A stretch of 64,000 nt of DNA from Arthrobacter stackebrandtii (GTDB taxonomy: Bacteria > Actinomycetota > Actinomycetes > Actinomycetales > Micrococcaceae). A program made the translations under genes and the position numbers. A model generated the notes under the pieces. That model saw nothing but the letters and a program-made list of their open reading frames with translations. It was not told where the DNA came from and made no database searches. Every line of letters begins with the position of its first letter. The first letter of the stretch is position 1. Of the stretch, positions 7,857 to 45,065 are shown piece by piece. The stretch is from assembly GCF_017876675.1 (NCBI RefSeq), contig NZ_JAGIOI010000001.1, positions 682,001-746,000 on the forward strand, in the 5' to 3' direction.

Positions 7857-7897
7857 ACCCATCCGCACGAACCAACTGTGACCAGGCAGGCTAAGCA

Positions 7898-12132: not shown

Positions 12133-12160
12133 GCTGCGCCACATCTGGCAAAATAGGGGG

Positions 12161-18970: not shown

Positions 18971-20491
18971 TCAGCCGCCCAGCTTTCCGGCGAGGCGCTC
19001 GCGCATGCGGGTGCTGGCATCGTTGAGTCCGACAATCTCCACGTCCTTGCCGTGGCGCCGGTATTTGTCGGTGATGGCGTCGAGGGTGGCGCTCGTGGAG
19101 GCGTCCCAGAGGTGCGATTCAGCCATGTCGATGATGACGCGGTCCGGGTCCAGGGCGTAGGAGAACTGCGTGTAGAGGTCGTTGGATGAGGCGAAGAACA
19201 GCTCGCCGTTGACCACGTAGGTGACGCTGCCTTCATCATCCGCGGGCACCCGGGTGACTGTGACAAAGTGGGCGACGCGGCGGGCGAACATGACCATGGC
19301 CAGCACCGTGCCCGTGCCGACGCCGATGGCCAGGTTGTGTGTGGCAACCGTGGCGATGACGGTTGCGACCATGACGAAGGTTTCACTCTTGGGCAGGGCC
19401 TTCAGGGTGCGCGGGCGGATGCTGTGCCAGTCGAACGTGGCCCAGCAGACGAAAATCATGACAGCGACGAGCGCGGCCATGGGGATGACCGAGACGACGT
19501 CGCCGAGCACCACGACCAGGAGCAGCACGAAGACTCCCGCAAAGAAGGTGGAGATGCGGGTGCGGGCGCCGGATGCCTTCACGTTGATCATGGTCTGGCC
19601 GATCATGGCACAGCCGCCCATGCCGCCAAAGAAGCCGGTCACGATGTTGGCGACGCCCTGGCCCCAGGCTTCGCGGGTCTTGTTGGAGCGGGTGTCGGTG
19701 ATGTCGTCCACGAGCTTGGCGGTCATGAGGGATTCAAGCAACCCCACAAACGCCATCGCGAGGGCGAACGGGAAGATGGTTTGGAGCGTTTCGAAGGTGA
19801 ACGGGACGTTGGGAATGAGCAGTGAAGGGAGCGAGTCCGGCAGCTCGCCCTTGTCCCCCACCGTGGGAACGGCAATGGACGCCAGCACGGTGACGAGCGT
19901 CAGGACCACGATCGCCACGAGCGGCGCAGGCACGGCCTGGGTGAACCGCGGCAGGACAAACATGATCAGCAGGGCGGCTGCCACGAGCGGATAGACCAGC
20001 CACGGCACCCCGATGAGCTCCGGCAGTTGGGCGATGAAGACGAGGATGGCGAGCGCGTTGACGAATCCGACCATGACCGAGCGCGGAATGAACCGCATCA
20101 GCCTGGCCACGCCGGACACCGCGAGGATGATTTGGATGACTCCTGCGAGGATGACGCAGGCAATGAGATAGTCGACGCCGTGCGACCTCACCAAGGGGGC
20201 GATCACCAGCGCCACGGCGCCCGTTGCTGCAGAGATCATGGCCGCGCGTCCTCCCGTGAACGCGATGGTCACTGCCATGGTGAAGGCAGCGAAGAGGCCA
20301 ATCCTGGGGTCGACGCCGGCGATGACGGAGAACGCGATGGCTTCCGGGATGAGCGCCAGGCCCACAACGAGTCCGCCGAGGATCTCTGTCTTCAGCCTGC
20401 GAGGGGACTTCAACGTGCCCCACACCGACTGCAGTTGCTCCGGTGTCAGTGCGTCTGACTTGGTGGTGCTGGCGGCCAAGGTTGGCTCCAT
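18971..20491 (-). CDS. SulP-family anion transporter with STAS domain
   Basis: A 506-residue membrane transporter. The N-terminal transport core has the SulP opening (GGLVVGLALIPEAIAFSVIAGVDP) and about 12-14 membrane segments to residue 380. The C-terminal STAS domain covers about 400-500 (SVTYVVNGELFFASSNDLYTQF, VIIDMAESHLWDASTSATLD). SulP proteins carry sulfate, bicarbonate, chloride or dicarboxylates; the ligand cannot be read from sequence. With a sulfatase gene 4 kb away, sulfate movement is an attractive but unproven link. It appears monocistronic, downstream of the epimerase gene on the same strand with a 173-bp gap that shows no other gene. Confidence 0.88.
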   Translation of the reverse strand: MEPTLAASTTKSDALTPEQLQSVWGTLKSPRRLKTEILGGLVVGLALIPEAIAFSVIAGVDPRIGLFAAFTMAVTIAFTGGRAAMISAATGAVALVIAPLVRSHGVDYLIACVILAGVIQIILAVSGVARLMRFIPRSVMVGFVNALAILVFIAQLPELIGVPWLVYPLVAAALLIMFVLPRFTQAVPAPLVAIVVLTLVTVLASIAVPTVGDKGELPDSLPSLLIPNVPFTFETLQTIFPFALAMAFVGLLESLMTAKLVDDITDTRSNKTREAWGQGVANIVTGFFGGMGGCAMIGQTMINVKASGARTRISTFFAGVFVLLLVVVLGDVVSVIPMAALVAVMIFVCWATFDWHSIRPRTLKALPKSETFVMVATVIATVATHNLAIGVGTGTVLAMVMFARRVAHFVTVTRVPADDEGSVTYVVNGELFFASSNDLYTQFSYALDPDRVIIDMAESHLWDASTSATLDAITDKYRRHGKDVEIVGLNDASTRMRERLAGKLGG

Positions 20492-21761: not shown

Positions 21762-22496
21762 TCAGGACATGGACCCGGCCGAATCAAGGGCCCGTCTGGC
21801 TTCTGCCACAAGGTTGGCACTTGTCGCGTCGAGTTCCTGGGCTCCCCCGCCCGGACCGGCAGGGTTCGGATCGTTGAAGGGGACTCGGGCGGACAAGTGG
21901 ACGGACCCGACGCCGAGAGCAACCAGGGCGGGGATGTCTTCGATGCGCACACCGCCGCCTGCCATGATCTGAATTCCCGCAGGTCCCTGCTGCACCATCG
22001 CTTCAAGCACGGCGCCCCCGTCGATACTGCGCACGGCTCCGCCCGAGGTGAGCACGCGCCCGACACCGGTGCCCTGCAATCGCAGGAGCTGCTTCAGCGG
22101 ATCCGCGCATGCATCAATCGCGCGATGGAAGGTGACCGGCAGACCGTCGGCAGCTTCAATCCATTCCTCGAGTGCGGCAAGGTCGATGTCGCCATGCCGC
22201 GTTAGGGCTCCCACCACCACCCCATGCACTCCGGCGGCCCTCAGATGCCGGATTTCACGGCTCATCGCGAAAATTTCCTCGCTGGTGTAGACGTATCCGC
22301 CGCCTCTGGAACGCACCAGGGCATGGACAAAGTCCGGCCGCCCTTGCCCCTGCTCCAGGACAGCCTCAACTGTTCCGTTGGAGGGCGTCAAACCGCCCAG
22401 CCGCAGCGCGGTGCACAACTCAACACGGGTGGCGCCGCCTTCCACTGCCGCGCGGGCCCCAGCCGGGTCCTGGACCGCAATTTCCAGATCAGTCAT
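21762..22496 (-). CDS. CutC-family TIM-barrel protein
   Basis: A 244-residue member of the CutC family (historically copper homeostasis). Family features: EGGATRVELCTALRLGGLTPSNG near the N-terminus, VVVGALTRHGDIDL, PVTFHRAIDAC, RVLTSGGA and IMAGGGVR. The usual RPRGG motif reads RSRGGGYVY here. The copper role is weakly supported in the literature, and the position as last gene of a fucoside operon argues for a sugar-related reaction or binding (inference). It starts 19 bp after the M81 gene. Confidence 0.85.
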   Translation of the reverse strand: MTDLEIAVQDPAGARAAVEGGATRVELCTALRLGGLTPSNGTVEAVLEQGQGRPDFVHALVRSRGGGYVYTSEEIFAMSREIRHLRAAGVHGVVVGALTRHGDIDLAALEEWIEAADGLPVTFHRAIDACADPLKQLLRLQGTGVGRVLTSGGAVRSIDGGAVLEAMVQQGPAGIQIMAGGGVRIEDIPALVALGVGSVHLSARVPFNDPNPAGPGGGAQELDATSANLVAEARRALDSAGSMS

Positions 22497-22515
22497 TTGT
22501 TTTAGCCTTCCAGCT

Positions 22516-24090
22516 TTATCGGCGGTGGATGCGGGCGGTCAGGGACGGTGCTGCGCCGTCGGCGGCAAAGGGGAACACGCCGTCGGACAAGTGGGAATGG
22601 CCCAGCCGCAACAGGTCCTGGTCCACCCCGCCAGGGGTGAGGGCAAGCTTCCAGCCCGCGGCGGCATCAAACAGTTCCGGCTCCAGGTAGCCGATCTTGA
22701 CCACGATAATGCCGAACTCCGACGGGTCCAGTCCCAGCTGCGTGAAGTCGGCAATGTGGTGGAAAGGCTTGCGGCGTTCGGTGACAATGGCAAAGACGTT
22801 GCCCACCTGGATCACGGCCTGCGTCCCGGCGGTGGGATCACCCTCGGTGATTGAGTAGACGGTGCCCTGCAACCGGACCGGGCCGTGGGCGTTGTGGTCA
22901 ACCCGCGCACCGGCTTCCAGGTCCACGGACCCGCCGACGCCTGCGGCCACAGCCTGGGCGACGGCTCCGGCGTCGAAAATCGAGGCATGGACAAGACGGA
23001 CATCCGCCGCGGCAAGCGTGTCGCTGGCGATCAACTGGGCCAGGGTCCAGGTGACGTCGCCCGCTCCCCCGGCGGTTGGATTGTCCCCTGTGTCGGAGAG
23101 GAAATACGGCCGCGGCGCATCCGGTGCGAGGGCTGCCTCGATGCCCTCTGCCAAGGTGGCGGTCTCTGCCACGAAGGCAAAGTCATCCCGGGCATCCCAG
23201 TACAGGGAGGCCAGCCGTTCCGCTTCCCGCCGAATGACTGCCTCGTCATCGCCGGTGACGACGACGTATGCCTGGCACCGTGGCTCGTCGGCCCAGGCGT
23301 ACCCAACCCAGATTGCGGCGTCGACGACTCCGTCCAGCGCAGCAACCGGCGGCACCTGGTCATAAATGCCCTTGGCCGGCTCGATCCTGGTGCTGGTCTT
23401 TTCCCCGGGCAGCAGCACTGGAACCGGCACCCAGGCCTTCAGCGGGCGGCGCTTCTGGACATCGGCGCCGTCCATGGAGCGAAGGCGCGTCAACAGGTTC
23501 CAGACGGCCCGCTCCTTGGTGTTCATCTCATCCTCATGCGGCGCCATGCGGTAGCAGGTGATGAGGTCGACGCTTTCCAACAGCTCCCAGGACACGTTGC
23601 CGTGCAGGTCCATGGACGTTGACACAAGGACACCGTCCCCGAGGGCTTCGCGCACATGCCGGGCAAGGTCGCCTTCGGCATCCTGCCGGCCGATGACGCT
23701 CATGGCACCGTGGATGTCGAAGAACAGGGCATCCAGGTGCCCGGCGTTCCTGATCCGCTCAACAATCTCGTCCCTGAAGGCAACATACAGGTCCGCATCC
23801 ACAGCACCGCCGGGGAGCGAACGGGCGTGCATGAGCGGCACCCACTCGGCAGCGCGCCTCAGCTCCCGCCCCTCGTCGAGGAAGGGATAGTAGCCAATCA
23901 GGTCTTCGCCGCGGCGGACGGTGAAAGCTTCCGCGCCGCTGATGTGCGGGGAAAAGGTGCTGGATTCGATGGAGATGCCGGCGATGCCAATCCGTGGCCG
24001 CGGCAACCCGCCGTCCTGCAGCGGTGCCAGCGGCGGGCACCAGACCTCGGATTGGTCGGGCAGGCCTGTGGCGTTTAGCTGTGCAGTCAT
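22516..24090 (-). CDS. M81 (MlrC-type) metal-dependent hydrolase
   Basis: A 524-residue member of the M81 family, named for microcystin-degrading MlrC. Conserved patterns: GIAGISIESSTFSP, the metal-site motifs FFDIHGAM and TSMDLHGNVS, YRMAPHEDEM, and FLSDTGDNPTAGGAGD opening the C-terminal domain. No signal peptide, so the substrate should be cytoplasmic. Family members hydrolyse amide or peptide-like bonds; the real substrate in sugar operons is unknown. Its ATG overlaps the sulfatase stop (ATGA). Presence between a sulfatase and CutC in a fucoside operon is unusual and suggests cleavage of an acyl or amide group from imported glycan or glycoconjugate fragments (inference). Confidence 0.87.
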   Translation of the reverse strand: MTAQLNATGLPDQSEVWCPPLAPLQDGGLPRPRIGIAGISIESSTFSPHISGAEAFTVRRGEDLIGYYPFLDEGRELRRAAEWVPLMHARSLPGGAVDADLYVAFRDEIVERIRNAGHLDALFFDIHGAMSVIGRQDAEGDLARHVREALGDGVLVSTSMDLHGNVSWELLESVDLITCYRMAPHEDEMNTKERAVWNLLTRLRSMDGADVQKRRPLKAWVPVPVLLPGEKTSTRIEPAKGIYDQVPPVAALDGVVDAAIWVGYAWADEPRCQAYVVVTGDDEAVIRREAERLASLYWDARDDFAFVAETATLAEGIEAALAPDAPRPYFLSDTGDNPTAGGAGDVTWTLAQLIASDTLAAADVRLVHASIFDAGAVAQAVAAGVGGSVDLEAGARVDHNAHGPVRLQGTVYSITEGDPTAGTQAVIQVGNVFAIVTERRKPFHHIADFTQLGLDPSEFGIIVVKIGYLEPELFDAAAGWKLALTPGGVDQDLLRLGHSHLSDGVFPFAADGAAPSLTARIHRR

Positions 24091-25544
24091 CGTGTTCCTC
24101 GCATGAATCCGGTGGAGCGCTCAAAAGTTTCTATCATTTCCAGTGCCTTGTCATTCTTCTCGGCCCAGAGGTTGGTGGCCTCACCGGGATCGGTGTCCAG
24201 CTCGTAGAACTGTCCGTCCCCGCGGCCGGTGTCGTCAGGTGCCCCCACAGGTTCGGAGAAGCCACCTGATCCGGTACCAAAGATGGCTTTGCCCGGACCG
24301 CTGCGCAGTACCAGTGTTCCGTCGAAGGCCTGGTGTCCCAGGATCCTGGAGTCAGCCGTGCTGCTTGAATCTGCGGAAAGGGCTGGGGCAAAGGAGACCC
24401 CGTCACCCAATTCGGTCGCTGCAGACGGCGCCGCGCCGGCGCCGGCTTCCGGCGATGACAGCAAGTCAGCAAGGGTGGCACGCACATCCATCAGGCTGAC
24501 CAGGTCCGTGCAGACATCACCAGCTTTAATTCCCGGACCGGCCACTATCAGCGGCACCCGGTGTCCGGCCTCCCAGGCATCTGCCTTTTGGCCGCGCCAG
24601 GGCCCGTTGGGGCGGTGGACTTCCACATCGCCGTCTTCCGGGAACATGGTGGGAGCGCCGTTGTCGGAGGTAAAAATGAAGATTGTGTTCTCACGGTCTT
24701 CTCCCAACGCCTCCAACAGCTGACCCACCATCCAGTCAACCAATACAACTCCGTCGCCGCGCACGCCGGCGTTGGAGCTGCCCTGGATGAATTCCGGAGG
24801 AACACAGGGCCGGTGCGGTGCAGCAGTGGCCACATAGGCAAAGAACGGCTTTCCGCCGTGGCGCTGTTGTGTGATCCATTCGGCGGCCTTGGCAACCACT
24901 GTGGTGTCGACGGCGTCGTCCCGCCAGCCCGGGCTCTGCAATCCGGGGCGCTGGGACGAAACCAAGTCTGGTTTCTCTTCCAGCGGCAGCCCTACCGCGC
25001 GATCCTGGTCAAGGAAACAGTAGGGTGGCATGTCGAGGGATCCGGCAATGCCAAAGTAGTGCTCAAATCCCAAGTCCGTGGGACCGCCGGTAAACGGCAC
25101 CTCATAATTGATGTCCCGTCCGTGCCCCTGCATTTGCGCCGCAAAATCGGTGGCAAAGGCGTCCCGTTTGGACCCGTCCAAAGCTGTCCAGTCGAGACCC
25201 ATGTGCCATTTGCCAAACGCACCGGTGGCATAGCCGGCTTCTTGGAAGTCCTTGGCCAGCGTGGCTTCTTCCGCGCCGATGATGGCAGGATCGAGCCCAC
25301 CAAGGACCCCGCTTTTCAGGGGGCTGCGCCAGGGATACGAGCCGGTCATCAAGCTGTACCGGCTGGGGGTGCAGACGGCCGATGAGGCGTGGGAGTCCGT
25401 AAACCGCACCCCGGCCTGGGCCAGGCCGTCCAGGTTCGGGGTGCTGATTCTTTTCGCCCCGTAGCAGGAGAGGTCTCCCCAGCCCAGATCATCTGCCAAG
25501 ACCACCACTACGTTCGATTGGGCCACGACGGCACTACCTTCCAT
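24087..25544 (-). CDS. type I sulfatase (formylglycine-dependent)
   Basis: A 485-residue sulfatase of the alkaline-phosphatase superfamily. The N-terminal metal site VVVLADDLGWGD is followed by the maturation motif C58-T-P-S-R, whose Cys becomes formylglycine, then LMTGSYPWR. A later metal motif is IFTSDNGAP. No signal peptide, so it acts in the cytoplasm, unlike most glycan sulfatases of Bacteroides. It needs a formylglycine-generating enzyme, not encoded in this window. The ATG is 3 bp after the ROK kinase stop; GTG 25526, with GGAAGG just upstream, is an alternative start. Substrate is probably a sulfated fucoside (from context). Confidence 0.9.
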   Translation of the reverse strand: MEGSAVVAQSNVVVVLADDLGWGDLSCYGAKRISTPNLDGLAQAGVRFTDSHASSAVCTPSRYSLMTGSYPWRSPLKSGVLGGLDPAIIGAEEATLAKDFQEAGYATGAFGKWHMGLDWTALDGSKRDAFATDFAAQMQGHGRDINYEVPFTGGPTDLGFEHYFGIAGSLDMPPYCFLDQDRAVGLPLEEKPDLVSSQRPGLQSPGWRDDAVDTTVVAKAAEWITQQRHGGKPFFAYVATAAPHRPCVPPEFIQGSSNAGVRGDGVVLVDWMVGQLLEALGEDRENTIFIFTSDNGAPTMFPEDGDVEVHRPNGPWRGQKADAWEAGHRVPLIVAGPGIKAGDVCTDLVSLMDVRATLADLLSSPEAGAGAAPSAATELGDGVSFAPALSADSSSTADSRILGHQAFDGTLVLRSGPGKAIFGTGSGGFSEPVGAPDDTGRGDGQFYELDTDPGEATNLWAEKNDKALEMIETFERSTGFMRGTR

Positions 25545-25546
25545 TC

Positions 25547-26425
25547 CTAGTTCAACAATCCGTGTGCAAGGGGCAGTGGCCGGTCGGGAGGGACCGGCGC
25601 ATTGTCAGCGGCATAAGCGGCCGCCCCAATGAATCCTGCATCAGGGCCCAACTCCGCTGAGCGGACTCGCGGGGCCGATTCGCGGCCGTGTTCGGCGAGG
25701 AGTTCCGCCAATTTCTCTTGTGTTGGCCGCACCAGCGCAGCACCGGCCGCACTGACCCCTCCACCGAGCAGGATCACGTCAGGATCCAGCAACATGGAGA
25801 CCTGGCTGAGGCCAAACCCGAGCCATCGAGCGATCTCGGCGAAGTCTTCAGGGGTCTGGGCATGCTTGGTCAGCGTGCTCCCGCTGGCATACCTGTCCAG
25901 GCAGCCACGGCTGCCGCAGCCGCAAGCCCGTCCACCCGGGTCCACGACCATGTGCCCGATCTCTCCGGCCCAGCCGTGGGCGCCGACAACGAGTTGCCCG
26001 TTGACCAGGAGTCCGCCTCCGATTCCCGTCCCAACCGTCACCATGGCCACATTCTGTGCTGAACGGGCTGCACCGAACCTAAACTCAGCCCACAACGCGG
26101 CGTTGGCATCATTGATTACCAGACAGGTGATGTCCAGCTTCGCTTCAATCAGATCGGCCAGTTTCGTATTTTCCAGTTCCAGGTTCGCGGCATAGACAAC
26201 GGACCGGTGGTCCGTGGAGACGTATCCTGGCACCGCAATGCCCACCAGGGTTCCGCCCACCTCCGGCTGCAGCTCCAGAATCGCCTCCACGACGGTGTTG
26301 GCGATGGCCTGCTCACCTTCAGGTGTTGCCTTTTGAACCCGTGCCAGGACGTGCCCTTTGTCATCGACCAGTCCGGCGGCTATTTTTGTCCCGCCGATAT
26401 CTACGCCTATCCACTCGGGGCTCAC
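25547..26425 (-). CDS. ROK-family sugar kinase
   Basis: A 292-residue kinase. ATP-binding GVDIGGTKIAAG is at residues 7-18, catalytic Asp in VINDANAA, GTGIGGG, the hexose-binding Glu-His in EIGHMVVD, and zinc motif CGCGSRGC. No helix-turn-helix, so it is an enzyme rather than a repressor. It phosphorylates a free hexose or amino sugar in the cytoplasm; specificity cannot be read. GTG start overlaps the GH29 stop (GTGA). Since fucose itself is normally handled by FGGY-type kinases or by oxidation, this kinase may serve the sugar to which fucose is attached, such as glucose, mannose or GlcNAc (inference). Confidence 0.9.
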   Translation of the reverse strand: MSPEWIGVDIGGTKIAAGLVDDKGHVLARVQKATPEGEQAIANTVVEAILELQPEVGGTLVGIAVPGYVSTDHRSVVYAANLELENTKLADLIEAKLDITCLVINDANAALWAEFRFGAARSAQNVAMVTVGTGIGGGLLVNGQLVVGAHGWAGEIGHMVVDPGGRACGCGSRGCLDRYASGSTLTKHAQTPEDFAEIARWLGFGLSQVSMLLDPDVILLGGGVSAAGAALVRPTQEKLAELLAEHGRESAPRVRSAELGPDAGFIGAAAYAADNAPVPPDRPLPLAHGLLN

Positions 26426-27765
26426 GGCAGCTCAACATCCGATGATCGGTGCGGAATGCTCAGAACGGCGATGGGTTCCCCGCGGAGCGCAGCCGGAACA
26501 ACCACGCCGCCCACGGCAGCATCACCGGTGCCAAGCCAGCTTCCTCCGGCAAGGTCCAACGGTGCAGGTGGAAGCTCAGCGTCAGGTGTCAGGACACACA
26601 GATATGTTGCCTCCGGCCCGACCGTGACGGCATAGTGCGGTTGCTGCTGGTCGCTGAGCGTTCCCGTCCATGGACGAGTGTTGTAGATGGCCTGGCCGTT
26701 GACATCCAACCAGGCGCCAAGGCCCAACAGCCGGTCGCGGTAGATCGCGGGAATGGTGCCATCGGCTGCAAGGCCGATGTTCAGCAGGAAGTTGCCGTTG
26801 CGAGAAACAACGGAAACGAGGTGCTGCACCAGTTCAGCCACGCTGAGGACGTCGGCTGCCGTCTCCTGTTGGTTGACGCCGAAGGACTTGCCCAGTCCGC
26901 GGCAGCTCTCCCAGTTTTTGTCCGATAGCCCTCCGATGTCGCTGTATTCCCGTGTCAGGTAGCCGTGGGAGGGAACACCCCAGCGGTCATTGACGATGCC
27001 TTCCGGCACCGTCCGCAGGTATTCGCGGAACAATGCCGCCACACCGAATTCTGAGTCTGACTTTCCCCCGTCAGGCCATTCAATGTCATTCCACAGGATG
27101 TCGGGGGAAAAGCGCTCGATAAGCTCCACCGCCTGTGCGTGGGAGTAGCGCGCGAAATCTTCATCGTTGCGGCGCAGCCGGAAAATGTCGGCATCTGAGT
27201 CAATGGCCCTGAAATCGCTCACATGCCAGTCGAGCGCACCTGAAAAGTAGCTGCCAAACTTGAGCCCGGCGGAACGGGATGAATCGGCAAACTCCTGCAT
27301 GAGGTCACGCCGGGGGCCGCGAACCGCGCTGTTGAAGGGCGTGGTGTCGGTTGCCCACAGGCAGAATCCATCATGGTGCTTGGCCGTCGGCACAACGTAT
27401 TTGGCGCCTGCCTTCCGGAAAAGCGCAACGCAGTCATCGGCGTCGAACTTCTCTGCCGTCCACACATCAGCCAGGTCTTCATAGCTGGTTCCCTCGCCGA
27501 AGGTGGCGCGCTGGTAGGCCTGGGCACTGCTGCCTTCGACACGCACCGTGTTGCCGTACCATTCCGCATACTGGTGGTCCCGGTAGGCGTCCTCAACCGC
27601 TGTCGGCGAATCGCCTACTTCAGCCCAGGCGGGAACGGAGTACAGCCCCCAGTGGACGAAGATGCCGAATTTTGCGTCGGCGAGCCACGTGGGAAAGTTC
27701 CACTCGGGATAGGTGGGGTTGTGTTCGCCAAAGTCAGGCCCAACACGGTCCTCAAAATTAATCAC
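26422..27765 (-). CDS. GH29 alpha-L-fucosidase (cytoplasmic)
   Basis: A 447-residue retaining fucosidase. Family signatures: KFGIFVHWGLYSVPAW, KHHDGFCLW (HH at 130-131) and FGSYFSGALDWH. The nucleophile is probably D227 in ILWNDIEWPD. RNGNFLLNIGLAADGTIP is the conserved end of the barrel. A C-terminal beta-sandwich follows. No signal peptide, so it hydrolyses imported fucosides. Lies directly after the permease genes (33-bp gap) and overlaps the ROK kinase gene. Confidence 0.9.
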   Translation of the reverse strand: MINFEDRVGPDFGEHNPTYPEWNFPTWLADAKFGIFVHWGLYSVPAWAEVGDSPTAVEDAYRDHQYAEWYGNTVRVEGSSAQAYQRATFGEGTSYEDLADVWTAEKFDADDCVALFRKAGAKYVVPTAKHHDGFCLWATDTTPFNSAVRGPRRDLMQEFADSSRSAGLKFGSYFSGALDWHVSDFRAIDSDADIFRLRRNDEDFARYSHAQAVELIERFSPDILWNDIEWPDGGKSDSEFGVAALFREYLRTVPEGIVNDRWGVPSHGYLTREYSDIGGLSDKNWESCRGLGKSFGVNQQETAADVLSVAELVQHLVSVVSRNGNFLLNIGLAADGTIPAIYRDRLLGLGAWLDVNGQAIYNTRPWTGTLSDQQQPHYAVTVGPEATYLCVLTPDAELPPAPLDLAGGSWLGTGDAAVGGVVVPAALRGEPIAVLSIPHRSSDVELP

Positions 27766-27798
27766 TTTTATACCTTTGTATGAAGAGGTGGATGGCGG

Positions 27799-28689
27799 CT
27801 AGCGGCCGGCCAGGCCAACAGTCGCGATGCCCTTGACCAGGTGCTTCTGCAGGGCTATCACCATGATCAGGGTGGGAAGAATGGCTATGACGGATGCCGC
27901 CATCACGAGGTTCCAGGAGTTTCCGTGTTCCCCGAAGAACGTCTGCAGGCCCAAGGACACGTTGCCGAGTTCGTTAACGTCGTTGACGACAATCAGGGGC
28001 CACAGGAAGCTGTTCCAGAAGGTAATGAACGTCCAGACGCCCAGCACGGCCAGTGAAGGCTTTGCCAGTGGCAGGATGATCCGGGTGAAGGTCCGCCATT
28101 GGCTGCAGCCGTCCATCCTGGATGCTTCCACCAGTTCGTAGGGGATGCCGAGGAAGAACTGCCGCAGGAGGAATACCCCGAAGGCCCCGAAGGCCCACGG
28201 GAGAATCAGTGCCTGCCAGGTGTTGATCCAGCCCAGTTTCTGCATCAGCAGGAACATGGGAATGACCAGCACTTCCTGGGGAATCATCATGGTGGCCAGG
28301 TAGAGCAGCATGTACTTGTCGCGACCGCGCCATTTGAGAATTCCAAAGCTGTAGGCGGCCAGTGATGAAACGGCCAGGACGATCAGCGTGCCTGCAACTG
28401 ACACGATCAGCCCGTTGATGATGAAGCGGAAAAATGGCGTGTAGTTGAAGACTTCAATGAAGTTCTGCCACCGGATCTCAGAACCTATCAGGGTCGGTGG
28501 CTGGGAAAATATTTCACCGTTCGGCTTCAGGGCGGAGAAGAAGGTGAAGATAATCGGGAACAGAAAAAGTACTGCCACGATGGCCAGCAGGACTTCACTG
28601 CCGAGCTTCAGCGGGCGGAACCGGAACTTGGACTTTTCAGTGTTCTGGCTCGCGTGCGGGGACTTGGCCTGGACTTGGATGTTAGTCAT
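27799..28689 (-). CDS. carbohydrate ABC permease, MalG type
   Basis: A 296-residue permease with six membrane helices. The EAA loop ELVEASRMDGCSQWRTFTRI contacts an ATPase. Start overlaps the MalF-type gene by 8 bp. No ATPase is encoded in this operon, which is normal for CUT1 importers that share an MsiK-type ATPase encoded elsewhere. Imports an oligosaccharide, likely fucosylated. Confidence 0.92.
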   Translation of the reverse strand: MTNIQVQAKSPHASQNTEKSKFRFRPLKLGSEVLLAIVAVLFLFPIIFTFFSALKPNGEIFSQPPTLIGSEIRWQNFIEVFNYTPFFRFIINGLIVSVAGTLIVLAVSSLAAYSFGILKWRGRDKYMLLYLATMMIPQEVLVIPMFLLMQKLGWINTWQALILPWAFGAFGVFLLRQFFLGIPYELVEASRMDGCSQWRTFTRIILPLAKPSLAVLGVWTFITFWNSFLWPLIVVNDVNELGNVSLGLQTFFGEHGNSWNLVMAASVIAILPTLIMVIALQKHLVKGIATVGLAGR

Positions 28690-29614
28690 AGTGAACCCAT
28701 TTCTTCTGTCCCAGCCACTGAATCATTGTGACAATAAGGATCAAGGCAAAGAGAATGATGGCGGGGGCAGCTGCGGCACCGAGTTCGCCACCTTGGAAAG
28801 CGGTTTGATAGACGTTCATGACCACGGTCACTGTGGAGGTTCCCGGACCCCCTGCGGTCATCACAAATGGTTCGGAGAATATTTGGAATGCCGAAATCAT
28901 GGTGACCGTTGAAGCGAAGAAGATCGCGGGTGTCAGCAGCGGAATCTTGATTCGGAGGAGCTGGCCCAACCCGTGGGCACCGTCCAGCATGGACGCATCA
29001 ATGATGTCTTGGGGCAGCTGGTCAATGGCCGCAGAGAAAATCAGCATGTTGTAGCCAAAACCCTGCCACACGATGACAACCACGACGGCCAGAAGGGCCG
29101 TGCTGCTGTCACCGAGAACGTTGGGCATGTGGATGCCAAACCATGACTGCAGGGTCGAGTCGATAAGGCCGTTGGGCTGGTAGATCAATTTCCAAATAAC
29201 GGCAGTTGCCACTGTTGGTGTCACGACCGGCAGGAAAAACAAGACCCTGTACAGCCGGCTGAAGCGGCTGGTGGCGACCCAGAACGCCGTTGACAGCGTC
29301 AGGACGAGATTTACCGGGACAACGACGATGGTGAAGACGAACGTGTTGATCAGTGCCGCCGTGAATTGGCTTCCTGGCGCGAAGAGGTTGCGGTAGTTGT
29401 CCAATCCGGCAAATGTCACTTCCCCGAACGTGGGCCAGTGGAAGAAGCTCGTGGCGATGGCCAAGATGGTGGGGAAGAGGATGAATACCGTCATCCCGAT
29501 GGCGCTGGGGGTTAGAAACCCCAGCGCCGAACGGGAATCAGAGCCCTTCCGCTTCTTTGGCGCAACAGGATCGGGGATCCTACGTGGCACGGTTTTAGTA
29601 GTTATTGCCGTCAC
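28682..29614 (-). CDS. carbohydrate ABC permease, MalF type
   Basis: A 310-residue CUT1 permease with six membrane helices and the EAA loop DIIDASMLDGAHGLGQLLRI. Pairs with the MalG-type protein encoded just downstream; 49 bp after the binding-protein gene. The N-terminal 30 residues are basic and cytoplasmic. Confidence 0.92.
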   Translation of the reverse strand: MTAITTKTVPRRIPDPVAPKKRKGSDSRSALGFLTPSAIGMTVFILFPTILAIATSFFHWPTFGEVTFAGLDNYRNLFAPGSQFTAALINTFVFTIVVVPVNLVLTLSTAFWVATSRFSRLYRVLFFLPVVTPTVATAVIWKLIYQPNGLIDSTLQSWFGIHMPNVLGDSSTALLAVVVVIVWQGFGYNMLIFSAAIDQLPQDIIDASMLDGAHGLGQLLRIKIPLLTPAIFFASTVTMISAFQIFSEPFVMTAGGPGTSTVTVVMNVYQTAFQGGELGAAAAPAIILFALILIVTMIQWLGQKKWVHYD

Positions 29615-29663
29615 GGTGGCACCTTTCTGCTGCTGCCGGCTTGAGCGGAATCGTTTGCAAGGG

Positions 29664-30953
29664 CTACTTCGCTCCGCTTTGCTGCACGGCCTTCAGTGCT
29701 TCAGACGGTGTGCTCTTGCCGCTGAACGCCTGCTGGAACTGCTGCGCCATCAATTTGGTGACCTTGTCCCAGTTGCTGGTGCTGATGAACGGTGTCGCCG
29801 ATTCGGAGGCAGCCTTGGTCACAACCGAGGCCTGATCTGAGTAGCCGGGATTCTTCGGGTCCACGTCCTTCTTCAACCCTTCGATGAAGGCAGGGACGGC
29901 CGCGGTTCGGGCCGGCAGGTTGCCGGCGTTGGCCGATGCCATCTGCGACTCTGCATCGGTGAGCACACCGATTGCCTGGGCGGCTTCGGTCTTGTTCTTG
30001 CAGGTGGAGGAGATGCCGAATCCGGAGTTGGCTGAGAACGTTCCGGCGCCTTCGGTGCCCTGGGGCAGGGTCACAACCCCTACCTGGAATCCGGCGGCGT
30101 CAGTGACGTTGCTCTTCATGTTCCATGAGCCGTCAACGGCCATGGCCACATTGCCGGCGACGAACTGCTGCTCGCCCCACGGCACGTCAGACGAACTTGC
30201 GGGAATGCTGCTGATCTTGTCTTCGGTGGCGAGGCCCGTGTACCAGGAGAATGCGGATTCAAATGCCGGGTCGGTCATCTGCAGCTCGCCGTTGGCGGAG
30301 ACTGGCTTGGCGCCGTTGTAGGCGAGAAGCTGTGCTGACATGTGCAGGTCGGAGAACGTCTGGCCGAAGGCAGGCTTTCCGGTTGCCTCCGTGATCTTCT
30401 TGGCTGCCGCGACGAATTCGTCGGTGGTCCAGCCGTCCTTGGGTTCTTCAACGCCGGCAGCCTTGAACGCATCCTTGTTGTAGTACATGACCATGGTGGA
30501 AAGACCGTAGGGCAGCGCATACTGCTTGTCACCATTCTGAAGGGCCTTCAATGCCCCCGCTTCCCATTCTGATTCGGTGAAGCCCGCGGCTTTGGCAAGA
30601 TCACCGTCGATGGGTGTCATGGCCTTGGCAAATGCCGGCAGGCGCAGGCTCTGCATGCTGACGATGCACGGGGCCGTGCCGGATGCCAGCTGCGACTGCA
30701 TCTTGGTGAAGTAATCCGAGAACGGCGCCGTTGTCAGATTGACCTTGATGTTCGGGTACTTCTCAGTGACCTTTCCGGCAAGGTCCTTCCAGGTCTGATT
30801 GCCTTCATCGCCCTGTGACCAGAAGGACCAGTCAAGGGTAACTTCGCCGCCGGCGTTGCCGCCGTCGGAGGGTGCCGTGGAACCACAGGCACTGGCACCC
30901 AGTGCAAGTGCGCCACCAAGGGCAATCGCTGTTAGCTTCTTTGCTAATTTCAT
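29664..30953 (-). CDS. CUT1 sugar-binding lipoprotein
   Basis: A 429-residue extracellular solute-binding protein (family 1). Signal peptide MKLAKKLTAIALGGALALGA followed by lipobox SAC (Cys at about residue 23). The mature protein has the family N-lobe (VTLDWSFWSQGDEGNQTW) and hinge motifs such as MAVDGSWN. First gene of the fucoside operon, preceded by a promoter (31033-31062) and the palindromic operator at 31000-31021. It sets the specificity of import; the ligand is inferred to be a fucosylated or sulfated oligosaccharide. Confidence 0.9.
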   Translation of the reverse strand: MKLAKKLTAIALGGALALGASACGSTAPSDGGNAGGEVTLDWSFWSQGDEGNQTWKDLAGKVTEKYPNIKVNLTTAPFSDYFTKMQSQLASGTAPCIVSMQSLRLPAFAKAMTPIDGDLAKAAGFTESEWEAGALKALQNGDKQYALPYGLSTMVMYYNKDAFKAAGVEEPKDGWTTDEFVAAAKKITEATGKPAFGQTFSDLHMSAQLLAYNGAKPVSANGELQMTDPAFESAFSWYTGLATEDKISSIPASSSDVPWGEQQFVAGNVAMAVDGSWNMKSNVTDAAGFQVGVVTLPQGTEGAGTFSANSGFGISSTCKNKTEAAQAIGVLTDAESQMASANAGNLPARTAAVPAFIEGLKKDVDPKNPGYSDQASVVTKAASESATPFISTSNWDKVTKLMAQQFQQAFSGKSTPSEALKAVQQSGAK

Positions 30954-30999
30954 GTCAATCCTTTGTCAGAGCCGTAGGCTCGTTGGCCTTGTGCTTATA

Positions 31000-31021
31000 A
31001 TTAATTCGGCGCCGAATTAAT
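31000..31021. promoter_or_regulatory. perfect 22-bp palindromic operator
   Basis: ATTAATTCGGC followed by its exact complement GCCGAATTAAT, with no spacer. It lies between the binding-protein gene (starting at 30953, minus) and the ROK repressor gene (starting at 31096, plus). On the minus strand it is 11 bases past the -10 box, so bound repressor would block the operon. The likely ligand protein is the ROK regulator at 31096. Confidence 0.85.
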
Positions 31022-31032
31022 GGCGTGATGTT

Positions 31033-31062
31033 AGGATAATCACAAGTATTGGCGCTAGTCAA
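31033..31062 (-). promoter_or_regulatory. promoter of the fucoside operon
   Basis: Minus strand: TTGACT (plus 31057-31062), 18-base spacer, TATCCT (plus 31033-31038). Close to the housekeeping consensus, 80 bases upstream of the binding-protein ATG. Confidence 0.6.
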
Positions 31063-31095
31063 CACCGGCTCACCAGGGGGAAGAAAATTTCAAAG

Positions 31096-32292
31096 TTGAG
31101 AATCCGCCCCCACACGACCCCAACTCGCGACGCCGTCAGCCGCGCCGAGATACTCGGACTCTTGGGGCAGACAGGCACTTTGAGCCGCAGTGAAATCGCC
31201 AAGCTGCTGGGTCTCGGGCCGGCAACCGTCACTGCGCAAGTCCGAAAACTCATCTCAGATGGATACGTCCGTGAGCTGGCAGTTGACGCCCGGTCAGGAG
31301 CCGGACGGCCCCGGATCCCGGTGGAGCTGATCCCCGACTCCGCCCTCGTAATCGGCGTCAGCGTCACCCCGACGAGCCTGATCACCGTGACCATGCTGAT
31401 CGACGGCACGATCCTGAATGCCAGGTCCCGCGTTTTTGATCCTTCCAAGCACGTGGTGGAGCAATTCAAGGCCCTGGTGAATGACCAGCGGGCCACCTTG
31501 GACCACCCTGAGCGTGTGATTGCCGTGGGGATCTCCATCTCTGGTGCTGTGGACCAGGCGCTGACGACGGTTCGCATCTCCACGACATTGAATTGGCAGG
31601 ACTTTGATCTTGGTCCCCGGCTGCAGCGGGCCGTCGATCTTCCCGTCTTCGTCTCGAATGACCTGTTTGCCCTCTCGACCCGAGAGGTCAGTTTTGGGTT
31701 CGGGCATGACAGGGATGATTTCCTTCTGCTCGGCCTTGGCTACGGCGTCGGTCTGGGCATCGTCAACCGACGGCGTGTTTTCAGCGGCTCGGGGGGATCG
31801 TCAACGGAATTTGGCCACATGTCGGTGGATACGAATGGTCCGCTGTGTGTCTGCGGCAACTACGGCTGCCTTCAGGTTTACGCAGGGCTGGAAGAACTGC
31901 TCCACCAAGCCCCTGGCAGGCCCTCTGCCGGTCGCCTGGCTGAGCTCCAGCAGAGGCTCCAGGCTGAAAACGACAACGAGCTGGCGGATTTCCTGGAGGA
32001 TGTTGGGCACCGCATCGGGCGTTCCGTTGGCGGAGTCGTGAATCTTTTGGGCATTGGAACGATTATCGTCACAGGCGAAACGACGAGCCTCTGGCCCGCC
32101 CTTAGCGATGGATTCACCCGCGGCCTGGACGAAACGGTGCTCAAGTTCCTGCAACCGGTGGAAATCACAGTCAAGACTTGGACCGACTCTGAAGACGCGG
32201 TCGGTGCTGCCGGTTTGGCCTTGCACAATGCGATCAGCCTCAACGTTCCGTTCCATGCCCGTGGCCGCCTTGCCCAGGCGGCCACGGAGTAG
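31096..32292 (+). CDS. ROK-family transcriptional repressor of the fucoside operon
   Basis: A 398-residue regulator. An N-terminal winged helix-turn-helix (SRSEIAKLLGLGPATVTAQV) is joined to a ROK sugar-binding domain with the Asp of VSNDLFA, the sugar-binding EFGHMSVD and zinc motif CVCGNYGC. Starts at TTG 31096; no ATG or GTG lies nearby, and GGGGGAAG is about 13 bases upstream. Divergent from the operon it probably represses through the 22-bp palindrome, with the sugar as inducer. Its stop is 1 bp from the stop of the convergent GH29 gene. Confidence 0.88.
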   Translation: MRIRPHTTPTRDAVSRAEILGLLGQTGTLSRSEIAKLLGLGPATVTAQVRKLISDGYVRELAVDARSGAGRPRIPVELIPDSALVIGVSVTPTSLITVTMLIDGTILNARSRVFDPSKHVVEQFKALVNDQRATLDHPERVIAVGISISGAVDQALTTVRISTTLNWQDFDLGPRLQRAVDLPVFVSNDLFALSTREVSFGFGHDRDDFLLLGLGYGVGLGIVNRRRVFSGSGGSSTEFGHMSVDTNGPLCVCGNYGCLQVYAGLEELLHQAPGRPSAGRLAELQQRLQAENDNELADFLEDVGHRIGRSVGGVVNLLGIGTIIVTGETTSLWPALSDGFTRGLDETVLKFLQPVEITVKTWTDSEDAVGAAGLALHNAISLNVPFHARGRLAQAATE

Positions 32293-32293
32293 G

Positions 32294-33640
32294 CTACTTC
32301 CGCGGTTGCGGGTCCATTTCCAACACGAAGACCGGCACCACGCCGTTCACGTCAATTTCCCTGACGTCGATGTTGAGCTCGCCGAGCGGGTCGCTGAGGA
32401 ACCTGTCATCCAATGTCGTCCGGAAGGTGAACGGCAGCTGTGCTCCTGAACCCAGGTGCCGGACCGCGGTGACGCGCTTGCCCGGAATGCTTCGGACGGT
32501 CACGGTTTCCACCGGCTTCGCCAACGCGAACAGGTAGGTGTTGTTGCCAGCGGCTGTGCTGGGTCCGTAGTACTGCCACGGCTCAAGGCCCGGTTGAACA
32601 CCGTGCACGGCTTCCTTGTTGCAGGCCATCCACCCTGCCAGCCCGTCCAGCAGGGCGGACTGTTCGGGTGCGAGGCTGCCATCGGCGGTGGGGCCCACAT
32701 TCAGCAGCAGGTTCCCGCCCTTGGCAACAACTTCAACCGCGGTCCGGACAATTTCGTGCAGCGACTTGTAGTTCTGGTCCTCGGGCACATAGCTCCAGGT
32801 GTCGCACATGGTCATGCAGCATTCCCACGGCTCAGCAAGTGGCTGTGCAGGGATGAACTGCTCGGGTGTGCGGTAGTCCCCGCTGCCGATGAGCCTGTCA
32901 TTGATCACGATCTCCGGCGCCAGGGAACGGATGTGGGCTTCCAGCCCTGCCGCATCCCATTCCTCGCGTGTGCGCTCCCATTCGCCGTCGAACCACAACA
33001 GGTCGATGGGGCCGTACCAGGTCAGCAATTCCGTGAGCTGGTCCTTCAAATACTGTTGGTAATCGGACCAGTCAGCAGCACCGGCCCGTGGATACCTTCC
33101 GTGCTGGTAGGGGCGCATCTCGTCGGTGAAGGCGGGATACTTTGCGTGGCCCCAGTCGGACAGCGAGTAGTACAGGCCGACCTTGATTCCGGCGGCGCGG
33201 AAGGCCTCCGTGTATTCCCTGACCAGGTCTCCCCCACGCCGGCCATACGGGGAGGACTCGATGGTCCGCCCGCTGGCCTTCGAGGGCCACGACGACCATC
33301 CGCTGTGGTGCCGCGCCGTGAAAACGGCGTATGTCATGCCCGCGGCAGCAGCCTTGCGGGCCAATGCCGCCGGATCCCAATGCTCCGGATCAAAGCTGTC
33401 AGCGGTGCTGTGATAGTCCGCGACCAGCGCTGTGGGGCTGTACCCCAGTCCGGCCACGCCGCCGAGCAGCGGCCATGATGCCTCCAGGCCCTGCTGGCTC
33501 GCATGGTCGTAGTGGATAAACATCCCCAGGCCTGCGGCCTTAAACCAGGGTTCCGTATGCTCTGCGGAGTTCGGTCCCAAGGGCGCCTCGGTTTTGGGGT
33601 CGTGAACCTTTTGGTCGGTCCAGTCAATTTCATTGCTCAA
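32294..33640 (-). CDS. second GH29 alpha-L-fucosidase
   Basis: A 448-residue cytoplasmic GH29 enzyme, clearly diverged from the one at 26422. Signatures: GLGMFIHYDHAS, ARHHSGWSSWPSK (HH at 111-112), nucleophile D218 in LLWFDGEWE, and GGNLLLNVGPTADG. No signal peptide. The start is TTG 33640, overlapping the amidohydrolase stop (TTGA) with GAGGAA upstream in that gene. Last gene of the fucose operon; it would free L-fucose inside the cell. Terminal linkage preference cannot be read. Confidence 0.9.
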   Translation of the reverse strand: MSNEIDWTDQKVHDPKTEAPLGPNSAEHTEPWFKAAGLGMFIHYDHASQQGLEASWPLLGGVAGLGYSPTALVADYHSTADSFDPEHWDPAALARKAAAAGMTYAVFTARHHSGWSSWPSKASGRTIESSPYGRRGGDLVREYTEAFRAAGIKVGLYYSLSDWGHAKYPAFTDEMRPYQHGRYPRAGAADWSDYQQYLKDQLTELLTWYGPIDLLWFDGEWERTREEWDAAGLEAHIRSLAPEIVINDRLIGSGDYRTPEQFIPAQPLAEPWECCMTMCDTWSYVPEDQNYKSLHEIVRTAVEVVAKGGNLLLNVGPTADGSLAPEQSALLDGLAGWMACNKEAVHGVQPGLEPWQYYGPSTAAGNNTYLFALAKPVETVTVRSIPGKRVTAVRHLGSGAQLPFTFRTTLDDRFLSDPLGELNIDVREIDVNGVVPVFVLEMDPQPRK

Positions 33641-34856: not shown

Positions 34857-36374
34857 CTATGCCAGTGCCTTGTTGTGGATGAGCCGGATGACGTCCTGGC
34901 TCATGGTGTCGTAGTCGTGGCTGTTGTCCACGGTGCCGGACAGCGTGAAGGAGTCCATGACGGCAATCCGGTCCGCGAGGGTGATCATCTCGGCGAGGTC
35001 GCTGGAGATCAACAGGATGGCCAGGCCCTGGTCGGCAAGGCCCCAGATCAACTCATAAAAGGAGCGCTTGGTGCGCACGTCGATGCCGATGGTGGGCTCG
35101 TCAATGATCAGGATCCGAGGGTCCGCCGCCAGCCACTTGGCCAGCGACACCTTTTGCTGGTTGCCGCCGGAAAGCTGCCCGGCCAGCTGGTCCTGCGAGG
35201 AGATCTTGATGTCCAGCTCCGCCACGTACTTCTCCACGAGGGACCGCTCACTGGCGCCGCGGACCATGCCGAGCGGCCCGGCCAGGTTCCCCCAGCTCGT
35301 GACAGCCACGTTGCGGGTGATGTTCTGCTCCAGGAACACTCCCTCTTCCTTGCGGCTCTCGGTGACGTAGCCGATCCCGTGCGTGTGCAGCGCGTCCCGC
35401 ACCGAATGGATCACGGCGGGGCTGCCGTTGACCAGCAGCTCACCCTCGGTGATGCGCTCGCGGCCCAGGATGGCGTGGGCCAACTCGGTCCGGCCGGCGC
35501 CGACCAGCCCGTACAGGCCCAGGATTTCACCGGGGCGCACCTCAAGGCTGATGCCTCCGTGGCCTGCAGTGGTGGTGACGTTGCGCATCTCCAGGACGGG
35601 CGCCTGCCCCTGGTCCACCGCGCGTTCGGGTGTCACAAGCGATGCCAGCGAGCGGCCCACCATGATGTTCACGATCTCATCGTGCGGGTGGTCCGCGAGC
35701 GCGGCGTCACTGAGGACGGTCTTGCCGTCGCGCAGCACCGTGACGGTGTCGCAGTGCGCATAAACCTCATCCAGCTTGTGGCTGACGAACAGGATGGCGG
35801 CACCGTCCGCCTTCAGCCTGTGGATCACGGTGAACAGCTTGGCCGCCTCCGCGTCGGAGATGGAGGCGGTGGGCTCGTCCAGGAGCAGCACCTTGGTTTC
35901 GGTGTAAAGGGCCCGGGCGATTTCCACGAGCTGGATCTGTGCGGAGGACAGCTGGGCAATGGGCGTCTGTGGGTCGATCTCGAAGTCCAGCAGGGCCAGG
36001 CAGCGGGAAGCCTCGGCGTTCACTTTTTTCCAGTCGATGAAGCCGAACCGCTTGGGCGTGCGGCTGAGAACGATGTTCTCGGCCACCGTGAACTCACGGA
36101 TCACGTTGCGTTCCTGGTGCACCACGCCCACCCCGGCCGCGCCGGATTCGGACGGGTTGGTGAACTTTTCCTCCACCCCGTTGATGAGCAGGGTGCCGGA
36201 ATCGGCCTGGTGCACGCCGGTCAGGTACTTGATCAGGGTGGACTTGCCGGCACCGTTTTCACCGAGCAGGGCGTGGACCTCGCCCGGCATCAGCGTCAGG
36301 TTCACATTGTCCAGGGCTTTCACGCCGGGGTACGTCTTGGTGACGTTGCTCGCTTGCAGGATGGGTGCGCTCAT
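34857..36374 (-). CDS. RbsA-type sugar ABC ATPase (two NBDs)
   Basis: A 505-residue CUT2 ATPase. The N-terminal NBD has Walker A GENGAGKST and signature LSSAQIQLVEIARAL. The C-terminal NBD has a degenerate A-loop (GLVGAGRTEL) with signature LSGGNQQKVSLAKWL and DEPTIGID, as normal for RbsA/XylG/MglA. The ATG overlaps the permease stop (ATGA). Energises the importer formed by the two permeases and the binding protein at 39706. Confidence 0.93.
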   Translation of the reverse strand: MSAPILQASNVTKTYPGVKALDNVNLTLMPGEVHALLGENGAGKSTLIKYLTGVHQADSGTLLINGVEEKFTNPSESGAAGVGVVHQERNVIREFTVAENIVLSRTPKRFGFIDWKKVNAEASRCLALLDFEIDPQTPIAQLSSAQIQLVEIARALYTETKVLLLDEPTASISDAEAAKLFTVIHRLKADGAAILFVSHKLDEVYAHCDTVTVLRDGKTVLSDAALADHPHDEIVNIMVGRSLASLVTPERAVDQGQAPVLEMRNVTTTAGHGGISLEVRPGEILGLYGLVGAGRTELAHAILGRERITEGELLVNGSPAVIHSVRDALHTHGIGYVTESRKEEGVFLEQNITRNVAVTSWGNLAGPLGMVRGASERSLVEKYVAELDIKISSQDQLAGQLSGGNQQKVSLAKWLAADPRILIIDEPTIGIDVRTKRSFYELIWGLADQGLAILLISSDLAEMITLADRIAVMDSFTLSGTVDNSHDYDTMSQDVIRLIHNKALA

Positions 36375-39677: not shown

Positions 39678-39705
39678 GATGGCCTTTCGAAAAGCGGGGT
39701 GGGTG

Positions 39706-43536: not shown

Positions 43537-43538
43537 CC

Positions 43539-44996: not shown

Positions 44997-45065
44997 GCAT
45001 TCCGCGGCCGGCAGTCCGGATCGACCGACACCACGTTGAAAGCACCCACCTTAGAGAGGTATTCC

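What the first reader, a model, noticed from the sequence alone, without database searches (positions are those of the whole stretch)
21762..31095. A single-operon fucoside/sulfatase locus in an actinobacterium with MlrC- and CutC-family genes
One minus-strand operon runs: CUT1 sugar importer, GH29 fucosidase, ROK kinase, sulfatase (CTPSR), M81 hydrolase, CutC-family protein. Most junctions are 4- or 8-base overlaps or gaps under 35 bp, so it is one functional unit. All hydrolases lack signal peptides, implying intact sulfated fucosyl-oligosaccharides are imported and dismantled inside. The inclusion of M81 and CutC in a sugar-sulfate route is not explained by known pathways and points to an undescribed substrate or step.
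Basis: partly seen in the sequence, partly recalled or inferred. Interest (0 to 1): 0.8.

Follow-up and report, generated by a model that had tools for sequence, protein, structure and literature searches.

The report
Sugar-asparagine scavenging operon with CutC
A soil-type bacterium carries an operon that probably imports and takes apart the sugar-asparagine stump of glycoproteins, and its gene company suggests a real job for CutC, a protein long labelled a copper protein, and for a relative of a toxin-degrading enzyme.

Summary
The operon is real and nearly as described: CUT1 importer, GH29, ROK kinase, sulfatase, M81, CutC on the minus strand, with a divergent ROK-type regulator across a perfect 22-bp palindrome.

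The substrate reading needs changing. The sulfatase is a local add-on (3 of 35 fucosidase-type loci), and many M81 loci lack fucosidase. The recurring core is ROK, M81 and CutC, mostly with an importer. In related operons Asparaginase_II stands beside orthologous CutC and ROK genes where M81 stands in others; in Bacteroidota CutC often adjoins glycosylasparaginase; CutC and ROK are fused in one genome; NagB follows CutC in three close relatives. The window's genome has no PF01112 glycosylasparaginase.

Best explanation (inferred, 0.6): intracellular breakdown of fucosylated GlcNAc-asparagine, with M81 a metal-dependent stand-in for glycosylasparaginase and CutC handling the released 1-amino-sugar or its phosphate. 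No biochemistry is shown. If right, CutC's open function becomes directly testable.

The parts
31096..32292 (+). ROK-family transcriptional regulator (HTH + ROK), divergent
   Evidence: PF13412 + PF00480; a homologue in the same divergent place in relatives
31000..31021 (.). perfect 22-bp palindrome in the divergent intergenic region, putative operator
   Evidence: one hit in the window at up to 3 mismatches against 0 in 100 shuffles; same 22 bp in L032, L033, L194, L195, L197, a variant in L035, none found in L034
29664..30953 (-). CUT1-type solute-binding lipoprotein
   Evidence: PF01547 E 1e-35
28682..29614 (-). ABC permease 1
   Evidence: PF00528, UgpA-like below cut-off
27799..28689 (-). 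ABC permease 2
   Evidence: PF00528, UgpE-like below cut-off
26422..27765 (-). GH29 alpha-L-fucosidase, no signal peptide seen; nearest solved relative 1hl8
   Evidence: E 3.3e-104
25547..26425 (-). ROK sugar kinase (putative GlcNAc kinase)
   Evidence: PF00480; nearest solved relatives glucokinases and ManNAc kinases; no NCBIfam kinase model over its cut-off
24087..25544 (-). S1 sulfatase with CTPSR formylglycine motif; accessory, lineage-limited
   Evidence: PF00884; nearest solved relatives include S1_15 sulfatases; 3 of 35 fucosidase-type loci
22516..24090 (-). M81 (MlrC-like) metallohydrolase, proposed sugar-asparagine amidase
   Evidence: PF07364 + PF07171; Zn ligands E42 D161 H163 H185 invariant in 40 sequences
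21762..22496 (-). CutC-family TIM-barrel protein, proposed to handle the released amino-sugar or its phosphate
   Evidence: PF03932; model pLDDT 94
32294..33640 (-). second GH29 fucosidase; its homologue follows CutC within the run in L195
   Evidence: PF01120
20665..21615 (-). aldose 1-epimerase, 146 bases downstream; membership uncertain
   Evidence: PF01263; gap
18971..20491 (-). SulP-type anion transporter, also downstream in L032; membership uncertain
   Evidence: PF00916 + STAS

Best explanation
A catabolic operon for glyco-amino acids of the GlcNAc-asparagine type, left over from N-glycoproteins. The ABC importer takes up fucosyl-GlcNAc-Asn (in this lineage also a sulfated form); the sulfatase and GH29 enzymes strip sulfate and fucose inside the cell; M81, a metal-dependent hydrolase, cleaves the sugar-asparagine amide in place of glycosylasparaginase; CutC deals with the released 1-amino-sugar (hydrolysis of the glycosylamine, or of its 6-phosphate); the ROK kinase makes GlcNAc-6-phosphate, which enters NagA/NagB. 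The ROK-type regulator binds the palindrome and is released by an inducer. Shown: gene content, order, conservation, co-occurrence, Asparaginase_II in M81's place in related operons, one CutC-ROK fusion, NagB and glycosylasparaginase neighbours of CutC in relatives, a conserved metal site. Inferred: every substrate, every reaction and the regulation.
For: Linkage: 31 of 31 family genomes with this M81 have CutC against 53 of 264 without; CutC within 1.5 kb in 21 of 31 (Fisher p 1e-19 if genomes were independent, 1.2e-4 by genus). Interchange: Asparaginase_II stands beside CutC and ROK in L190, L234, L235, L241; M81 stands beside CutC and ROK in L237, L238, L243, L244, L245, L247; CutC and ROK of both sets fall together in the trees (98/95 and 96/97). 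Fusion: one CutC-ROK protein in L190. Asparaginase_2 lies within 1.3 kb of CutC in at least 16 of 48 CutC-bearing genomes of a 149-genome sample of Maribacter's class; the three such proteins that I compared with solved structures are all closest to glycosylasparaginase (E 7.5e-120, 2.4e-126, 1.4e-109). NagB, over its cut-off, directly after CutC in L243, L244, L247. No PF01112 in the window's genome. GH29 + ROK + importer parallels the L. [quoted passage not shown] FGE-family proteins are present for the sulfatase.
Against: No M81 of this group and no CutC has been assayed on such a substrate in anything I read. The interchange is seen in a clade of CutC and ROK to which the window's own copies do not belong, so it bears on the window by extension. 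L237 and L238 show no importer in the stretch. Maribacter carries this M81 and a glycosylasparaginase together, and Bacteroidota M81 copies look exported, so M81 there is not a simple replacement. 11 of 35 fucosidase-type loci have no CutC in the fetched stretch; of these 11 I searched five genomes (L036, L037, L040, L048, L057), and all five have CutC elsewhere. Kribbella and Bacteroidota M81 loci show no ROK or CutC neighbour. The one Acidobacteriota genome with this M81 has no CutC. The NagA match of the window's genome is below the curated cut-off and far away. The Arg-rich invariant set of CutC may suit a phosphorylated substrate better than a free glycosylamine. Asparaginase_II homologues elsewhere in the window's genome could do an amide step.
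Confidence: 0.6

Rival explanations
1. One reading: a route for sulfated fucosyl-oligosaccharides in which M81 and CutC act on an unknown part of that oligosaccharide.
For: Sulfatase and GH29 stand in the same operon here; FGE-family proteins are present; the nearest solved sulfatases act on sugars, among them a GalNAc-6-O-sulfatase.
Against: Sulfatase in 3 of 35 fucosidase-type loci; fucosidase absent from 15 of 15 loci with a dipeptide-type importer, all of which have M81 and a ROK gene; the core keeps company with asparaginases and NagB.
Confidence: 0.12
2. An Amadori-type pathway (fructosyl-asparagine and kin, like the Salmonella fra operon, recalled): asparaginase or M81 deamidates, ROK phosphorylates, CutC is the deglycase in place of FraB.
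For: Asparaginase_II, ROK kinase and amino-acid-type importer together in L190, L235, L241; CutC-ROK fusion in L190.
Against: Glycosylasparaginase beside CutC in Bacteroidota, GH29 and GH20 neighbours of M81, NagB after CutC.
Confidence: 0.12
3. M81 is a peptidase that trims glycopeptides to the glyco-amino acid (as PepV was thought to do in the L. casei cluster) and another enzyme cleaves the sugar-Asn bond.
For: MlrC is a peptidase (PMC9982164, passages); dipeptide-type importers in many M81 loci; an M60 peptidase beside one M81; Asparaginase_II homologues elsewhere in the window's genome (47% and 44% identity to the L190 protein).
Against: Asparaginase_II stands beside the same CutC and ROK genes in sister operons that lack M81; no PF01112 in the window's genome.
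Confidence: 0.25
4. CutC here is a copper protein that protects metalloenzymes, and its link to sugar genes is incidental.
For: Family name; the second CutC of this genome lies near cytochrome oxidase genes (L189); cutC is named among copper homeostasis genes that respond in group B Streptococcus (PMC9902490, passages).
Against: Recurrent linkage to sugar and asparaginase genes in two phyla, a fusion to a ROK protein, and a foreign CutC in the same slot in L194.
Confidence: 0.08

Closest known systems
Lacticaseibacillus casei alf-2 operon (PMC6960285, abstract and passages seen)
   Same: Importer, GH29 fucosidase, ROK kinase and dedicated regulator around a sugar-asparagine cleavage step
   Different: L. 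casei uses an MFS permease, the glycosylasparaginase AsnA2, PepV, AsdA and a GntR regulator; here a CUT1 ABC importer, M81 and no PF01112 protein, a CutC protein, a ROK-type regulator and a sulfatase. CutC is not named in that paper; whether L. casei has one nearby was not looked up
Microcystinase MlrC / M81 (7ylq, 3iuu)
   Same: Fold (TM normalised by the query 0.64-0.77); the Zn ligands E39, D167, H169, H191 (the paper also prints H196) map to E42, D161, H163, H185
   Different: 22-23% identity; 91 bits against a curated cut-off of 999 for MlrC; MlrC's catalytic E70 falls in an insertion relative to this protein in the alignment; sugar-operon context
CutC family (1twd, human 3iwp)
   Same: Fold (TM about 0.9); the polar invariant residues E5, R24, E26, C28, T37, R62, R64, Y70, D105, H124, R125, D128, R147, S151, H200 are kept in both as aligned
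   Different: 165 bits against the 311-bit cut-off of NCBI's copper homeostasis CutC model; gene company is sugar and amide hydrolysis
Xanthomonas N-glycan (nix) cluster (PMC5700972, passages)
   Same: N-glycan breakdown with fucosidase and an asparaginase nearby; a predicted interaction network also names CutC
   Different: Enzymes with signal peptides and a TonB-dependent receptor; the CutC link is a database prediction through VirK, no shared operon reported in the passages

Membership tests
L. casei type fucosyl-GlcNAc-Asn pathway | GH29 fucosidase in the operon | tested here: met
   PF01120
L. casei type fucosyl-GlcNAc-Asn pathway | glycosylasparaginase (PF01112) in the genome | tested here: not met
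   0 matches in G000; so it is not filed as that pathway, only as working like it
L. casei type fucosyl-GlcNAc-Asn pathway | ROK-family kinase in the operon | tested here: met
   PF00480; substrate not tested
L. casei type fucosyl-GlcNAc-Asn pathway | growth on and induction by fucosyl-GlcNAc-Asn | not testable with these tools
   needs culture
M81 metallohydrolase | both Pfam domains and four Zn ligands | tested here: met
Microcystinase MlrC | score over the curated MlrC cut-off | tested here: not met
   91.2 bits against 999
CutC family | Pfam CutC over gathering score and fold | tested here: met
   185.5 against 23.3 bits
CutC family | copper homeostasis role | not testable with these tools
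   NCBI equivalog cut-off not reached (165 of 311 bits); needs assay
S1 sulfatase | C/S-x-P-S-R motif | tested here: met
   CTPSR
S1 sulfatase | formylglycine-generating enzyme in the genome | tested here: inconclusive
   three PF03781 matches over cut-off in G000; the family also holds other enzymes (recalled)
GH29 alpha-L-fucosidase | family match over cut-off | tested here: met
   299 against 25 bits; linkage specificity not tested

The most novel reading that the evidence does not exclude
CutC, from bacteria to humans, is not a copper protein but an enzyme for reducing-end amino-sugars: it clears the glycosylamine (1-amino-GlcNAc) or its 6-phosphate that sugar-asparagine cleavage leaves behind. 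It works next to whichever of three different amide-hydrolase families a lineage uses (glycosylasparaginase, Asparaginase_II, or M81), and M81 includes a new metal-dependent class of glycosylasparaginase.
Probability: 0.35. Interest if true: 0.9.

Novelty: new variant of a known kind. Interest (0 to 1): 0.7.

Why it matters
CutC is a family with members from bacteria to humans (solved structures of both) and a disputed name (dispute recalled), so a concrete, testable substrate class would be useful well beyond this bacterium. M81 is known from microcystin breakdown; a role in glycoprotein scavenging would explain this group, which recurs across actinobacterial genera. The known fucosyl-GlcNAc-Asn pathway leaves the 1-amino-sugar to spontaneous decay at acid pH; an enzyme for that step would close the gap for cells with a neutral cytoplasm.

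Tried and rejected
L-fuconate route: the MLE-family protein at 38589-39983 was tested as a possible L-fuconate dehydratase. Its best solved match is an unnamed-function MLE protein (2og9, E 6e-71); L-talarate/galactarate dehydratase follows at 5.3e-66 and L-fuconate dehydratase at 2.3e-38, and the best NCBIfam model is talarate/galactarate dehydratase, below its cut-off. So the fate of fucose stays open.

CutC as a Schiff-base aldolase: the nearest folds outside the family include MJ1099 and N-acetylneuraminate lyase, but no lysine is invariant among 33 sequences, so I do not favour it.

tRNA-Gly reported inside M81: taken as a false positive. L246 (CutC + ROK) sits beside histidine-utilisation genes and was not counted as support. 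L236 has Asparaginase_II and ROK without CutC. In one search five of the 347 genomes have an Asparaginase_II at 62% identity or more; CutC is next to it in four (G514, G568, G678, G555) and not in G756; the family at large is common (148 of 347) and mostly not linked to this question. In the sample of Maribacter's class one of the 16 adjacent pairs, G316, was the chosen centre, so an unbiased figure is 15 of 47; the row list was cut, so both are lower bounds. The ORF caller is crude and dropped some genes, so locus counts rest on tblastn; only 67 of 80 loci have wide flanks on both sides, and ROK counts do not separate kinase from regulator. The 66 loci of the CutC tree were chosen by hand to cover the arrangements; the ROK tree used the 25 of them with a ROK hit over 90 bits within 8 kb on the CutC strand, and its output warns of long branches. 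L033 (CutC) and L089 (both alignments) were left out because a matched stretch held a stop or would have (the errors named L033 for CutC and L089 for M81); L050's CutC row was also not given to the final alignment.

Printed record: in the held open-licence library no paper has both CutC and glycosylasparaginase (0 papers); CutC + asparaginase + fucosidase 1, CutC + N-glycan + Xanthomonas 4, CutC + ROK family 3, CutC + TIM barrel + copper 2, M81 family + sugar 3, MlrC + N-acetylglucosamine 3. I read passages of PMC5700972, PMC3146418 and PMC9902490 and saw the rest as listings only; nothing that I saw describes this operon. Subscription papers and preprints are not held.


Full report
What is there. 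The window lies in a 4.43-Mb single-contig genome; its nearest named relatives by M81 are Arthrobacter and Paenarthrobacter strains. A ROK-type regulator faces it. Between them lies a perfect 22-bp palindrome at 31000-31021, whose 20-base core is found once in the window and in no shuffle.

How far the unit is conserved. Among 295 genomes of the family 35 have an M81 match, 31 of them at 50% identity or more. All 31 have CutC, against 53 of the other 264; in 21 of 31 it lies within 1.5 kb, in G164 5.8 kb away, in nine elsewhere. Of the four genomes with only distant M81 (about 30% identity) one, G200, has CutC. By genus the overlap is 10 of 10 within 16 CutC genera of 32 (p 1.2e-4). Of 27 genomes reached through named loci with this M81, 26 have CutC; the exception is the Acidobacteriota one. 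The 26 include Spirosoma, Telluribacter, two Maribacter, two Chitinophaga-type MAGs and Rhodohalobacter; for scale, 48 of 149 genomes of Maribacter's class have CutC over the cut-off.

Three arrangements, one core. Of 80 named loci, 35 have GH29 and CUT1 genes near M81; all 35 have a ROK hit, 24 a CutC in the fetched stretch, 3 a sulfatase. Fifteen have a dipeptide-type importer (SBP_bac_5): none of these has GH29, all 15 a ROK hit, 5 a CutC nearby. Of the other 30, which include Kribbella and Bacteroidota loci and several short contigs, 4 have GH29, 3 CutC and 4 a ROK hit. So fucosidase, and still more sulfatase, are options; M81 with ROK, CutC and an importer recurs.

What the core does: three clues. 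First, interchange. In G159 the cluster is a ROK-type regulator, an amino-acid-type ABC importer, Asparaginase_II, and one protein carrying CutC and ROK domains. L234, L235 and L241 carry Asparaginase_II, CutC and ROK as separate genes; L237 and L238 carry ROK, CutC and M81 (no importer recognised nearby); L243, L244, L245 and L247 carry regulator, M81, ROK and CutC next to an SBP_bac_5 importer. In the CutC tree of 66 sequences the five Asparaginase_II-type sequences, L237/L238 and L243/L244/L245/L247 share one group with two other rows, L223 and L226 (98/95), and L241 falls with the M81-type rows (99/96). In the ROK tree of 25 these genes again form one group (96/97), with L237/L238 among the Asparaginase_II type at lower support (93/93). 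This is what replacement of one enzyme by another of a different family with the same task looks like. The window's own CutC and ROK lie outside this group, so the argument reaches the window through its M81, which is 48-52% identical to those of the six loci. Second, in Maribacter's class Asparaginase_2 lies within 1.3 kb of CutC in at least 16 of 48 CutC genomes, and three of three such proteins tested (L176, L175, L178) are closest to solved glycosylasparaginase. Of the 50 genomes with any CutC match 48 have Asparaginase_2, against 69 of the 99 others (p 1e-4). Third, NagB, over its curated cut-off, follows CutC directly in L243, L244 and L247, so GlcN-6-phosphate is the likely end; these three are close relatives and may count as one event, and the matching place in L245 gave no family.

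Mechanism proposed. By analogy with the L. casei operon (PMC6960285, passages), fucosyl-GlcNAc-Asn enters, GH29 removes fucose, and the sugar-asparagine amide is cleaved. The window's genome has no PF01112 protein, and in the family only 4 of 295 do (G211 is the one of the 31 M81 genomes among them). M81 keeps the Zn ligands of MlrC, and its only solid fold matches are the two solved M81 proteins. CutC is a TIM barrel with an invariant Arg/Asp/Glu/His set and no invariant lysine; these polar residues are kept in the human protein as aligned. Its fusion to ROK suggests a step directly before or after phosphorylation. The L. [quoted passage not shown] a dedicated enzyme would be useful in a neutral cytoplasm. 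That CutC is this enzyme is inference. Asparaginase_II homologues exist elsewhere in the window's genome and could in principle do an amide step.

The sulfatase. Its nearest solved relatives are S1_15 enzymes, among them a GalNAc-6-O-sulfatase (subfamily names partly recalled). Among the seven closest loci it is in six (G000, G221, G239, G157, G263, G098) and not in G211, so it is lineage-limited. FGE-family matches are present. A SulP transporter lies downstream here and in L032.

Weighing. The linkage and interchange results are firm as genomics; the chemistry is unproven. I put 0.6 on a GlcNAc-Asn-type substrate with M81 doing the amide step, and 0.35 on the bolder reading that CutC is generally an amino-sugar enzyme. 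It is a new variant of a known pathway rather than a new kind of system, with high interest because it makes the function of CutC testable.

Noticed in passing
G000 second CutC, L189 6546-7280: The genome's other CutC lies near, and on the same strand as, cytochrome c oxidase subunit III and cytochrome c genes, with a Glycos_transf_3 gene on the other strand between; the one context here that could fit a copper role.
   Followed up: partly
L194 (G221), CutC about 9454-10254: M81 is 92% identical to the window's but CutC only 53%, and the CutC tree groups it with L191 and L192: a foreign CutC in the same slot.
   Followed up: yes
L202 (G008) 11305-12762: A Peptidase_M60 gene directly after M81, which would fit glycoprotein substrates.
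   Followed up: no
L063 (Tessaracoccus bendigoensis) 7324-9822: A GH20 protein with a GH18 match, divergent from M81-GH29.
   Followed up: no
L097, L101, L103, L111; L175, L176, L178: Bacteroidota M81 copies have signal- or lipoprotein-like N-termini by eye, unlike the window's; the glycosylasparaginases there begin with an RRKFL motif like a twin-arginine signal.
   Followed up: partly
window 22533-22633: ARAGORN calls a tRNA-Gly inside the M81 gene; likely false.
   Followed up: no
window 34857-40761: Sugar ABC importer genes with a mandelate racemase-family protein nearest named relatives of talarate/galactarate dehydratase type, next to the second GH29.
   Followed up: partly
window 42346-46238: Xylose isomerase and xylulokinase (both over curated cut-offs) and a protein nearest levoglucosan dehydrogenase, below its cut-off.
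   Followed up: no
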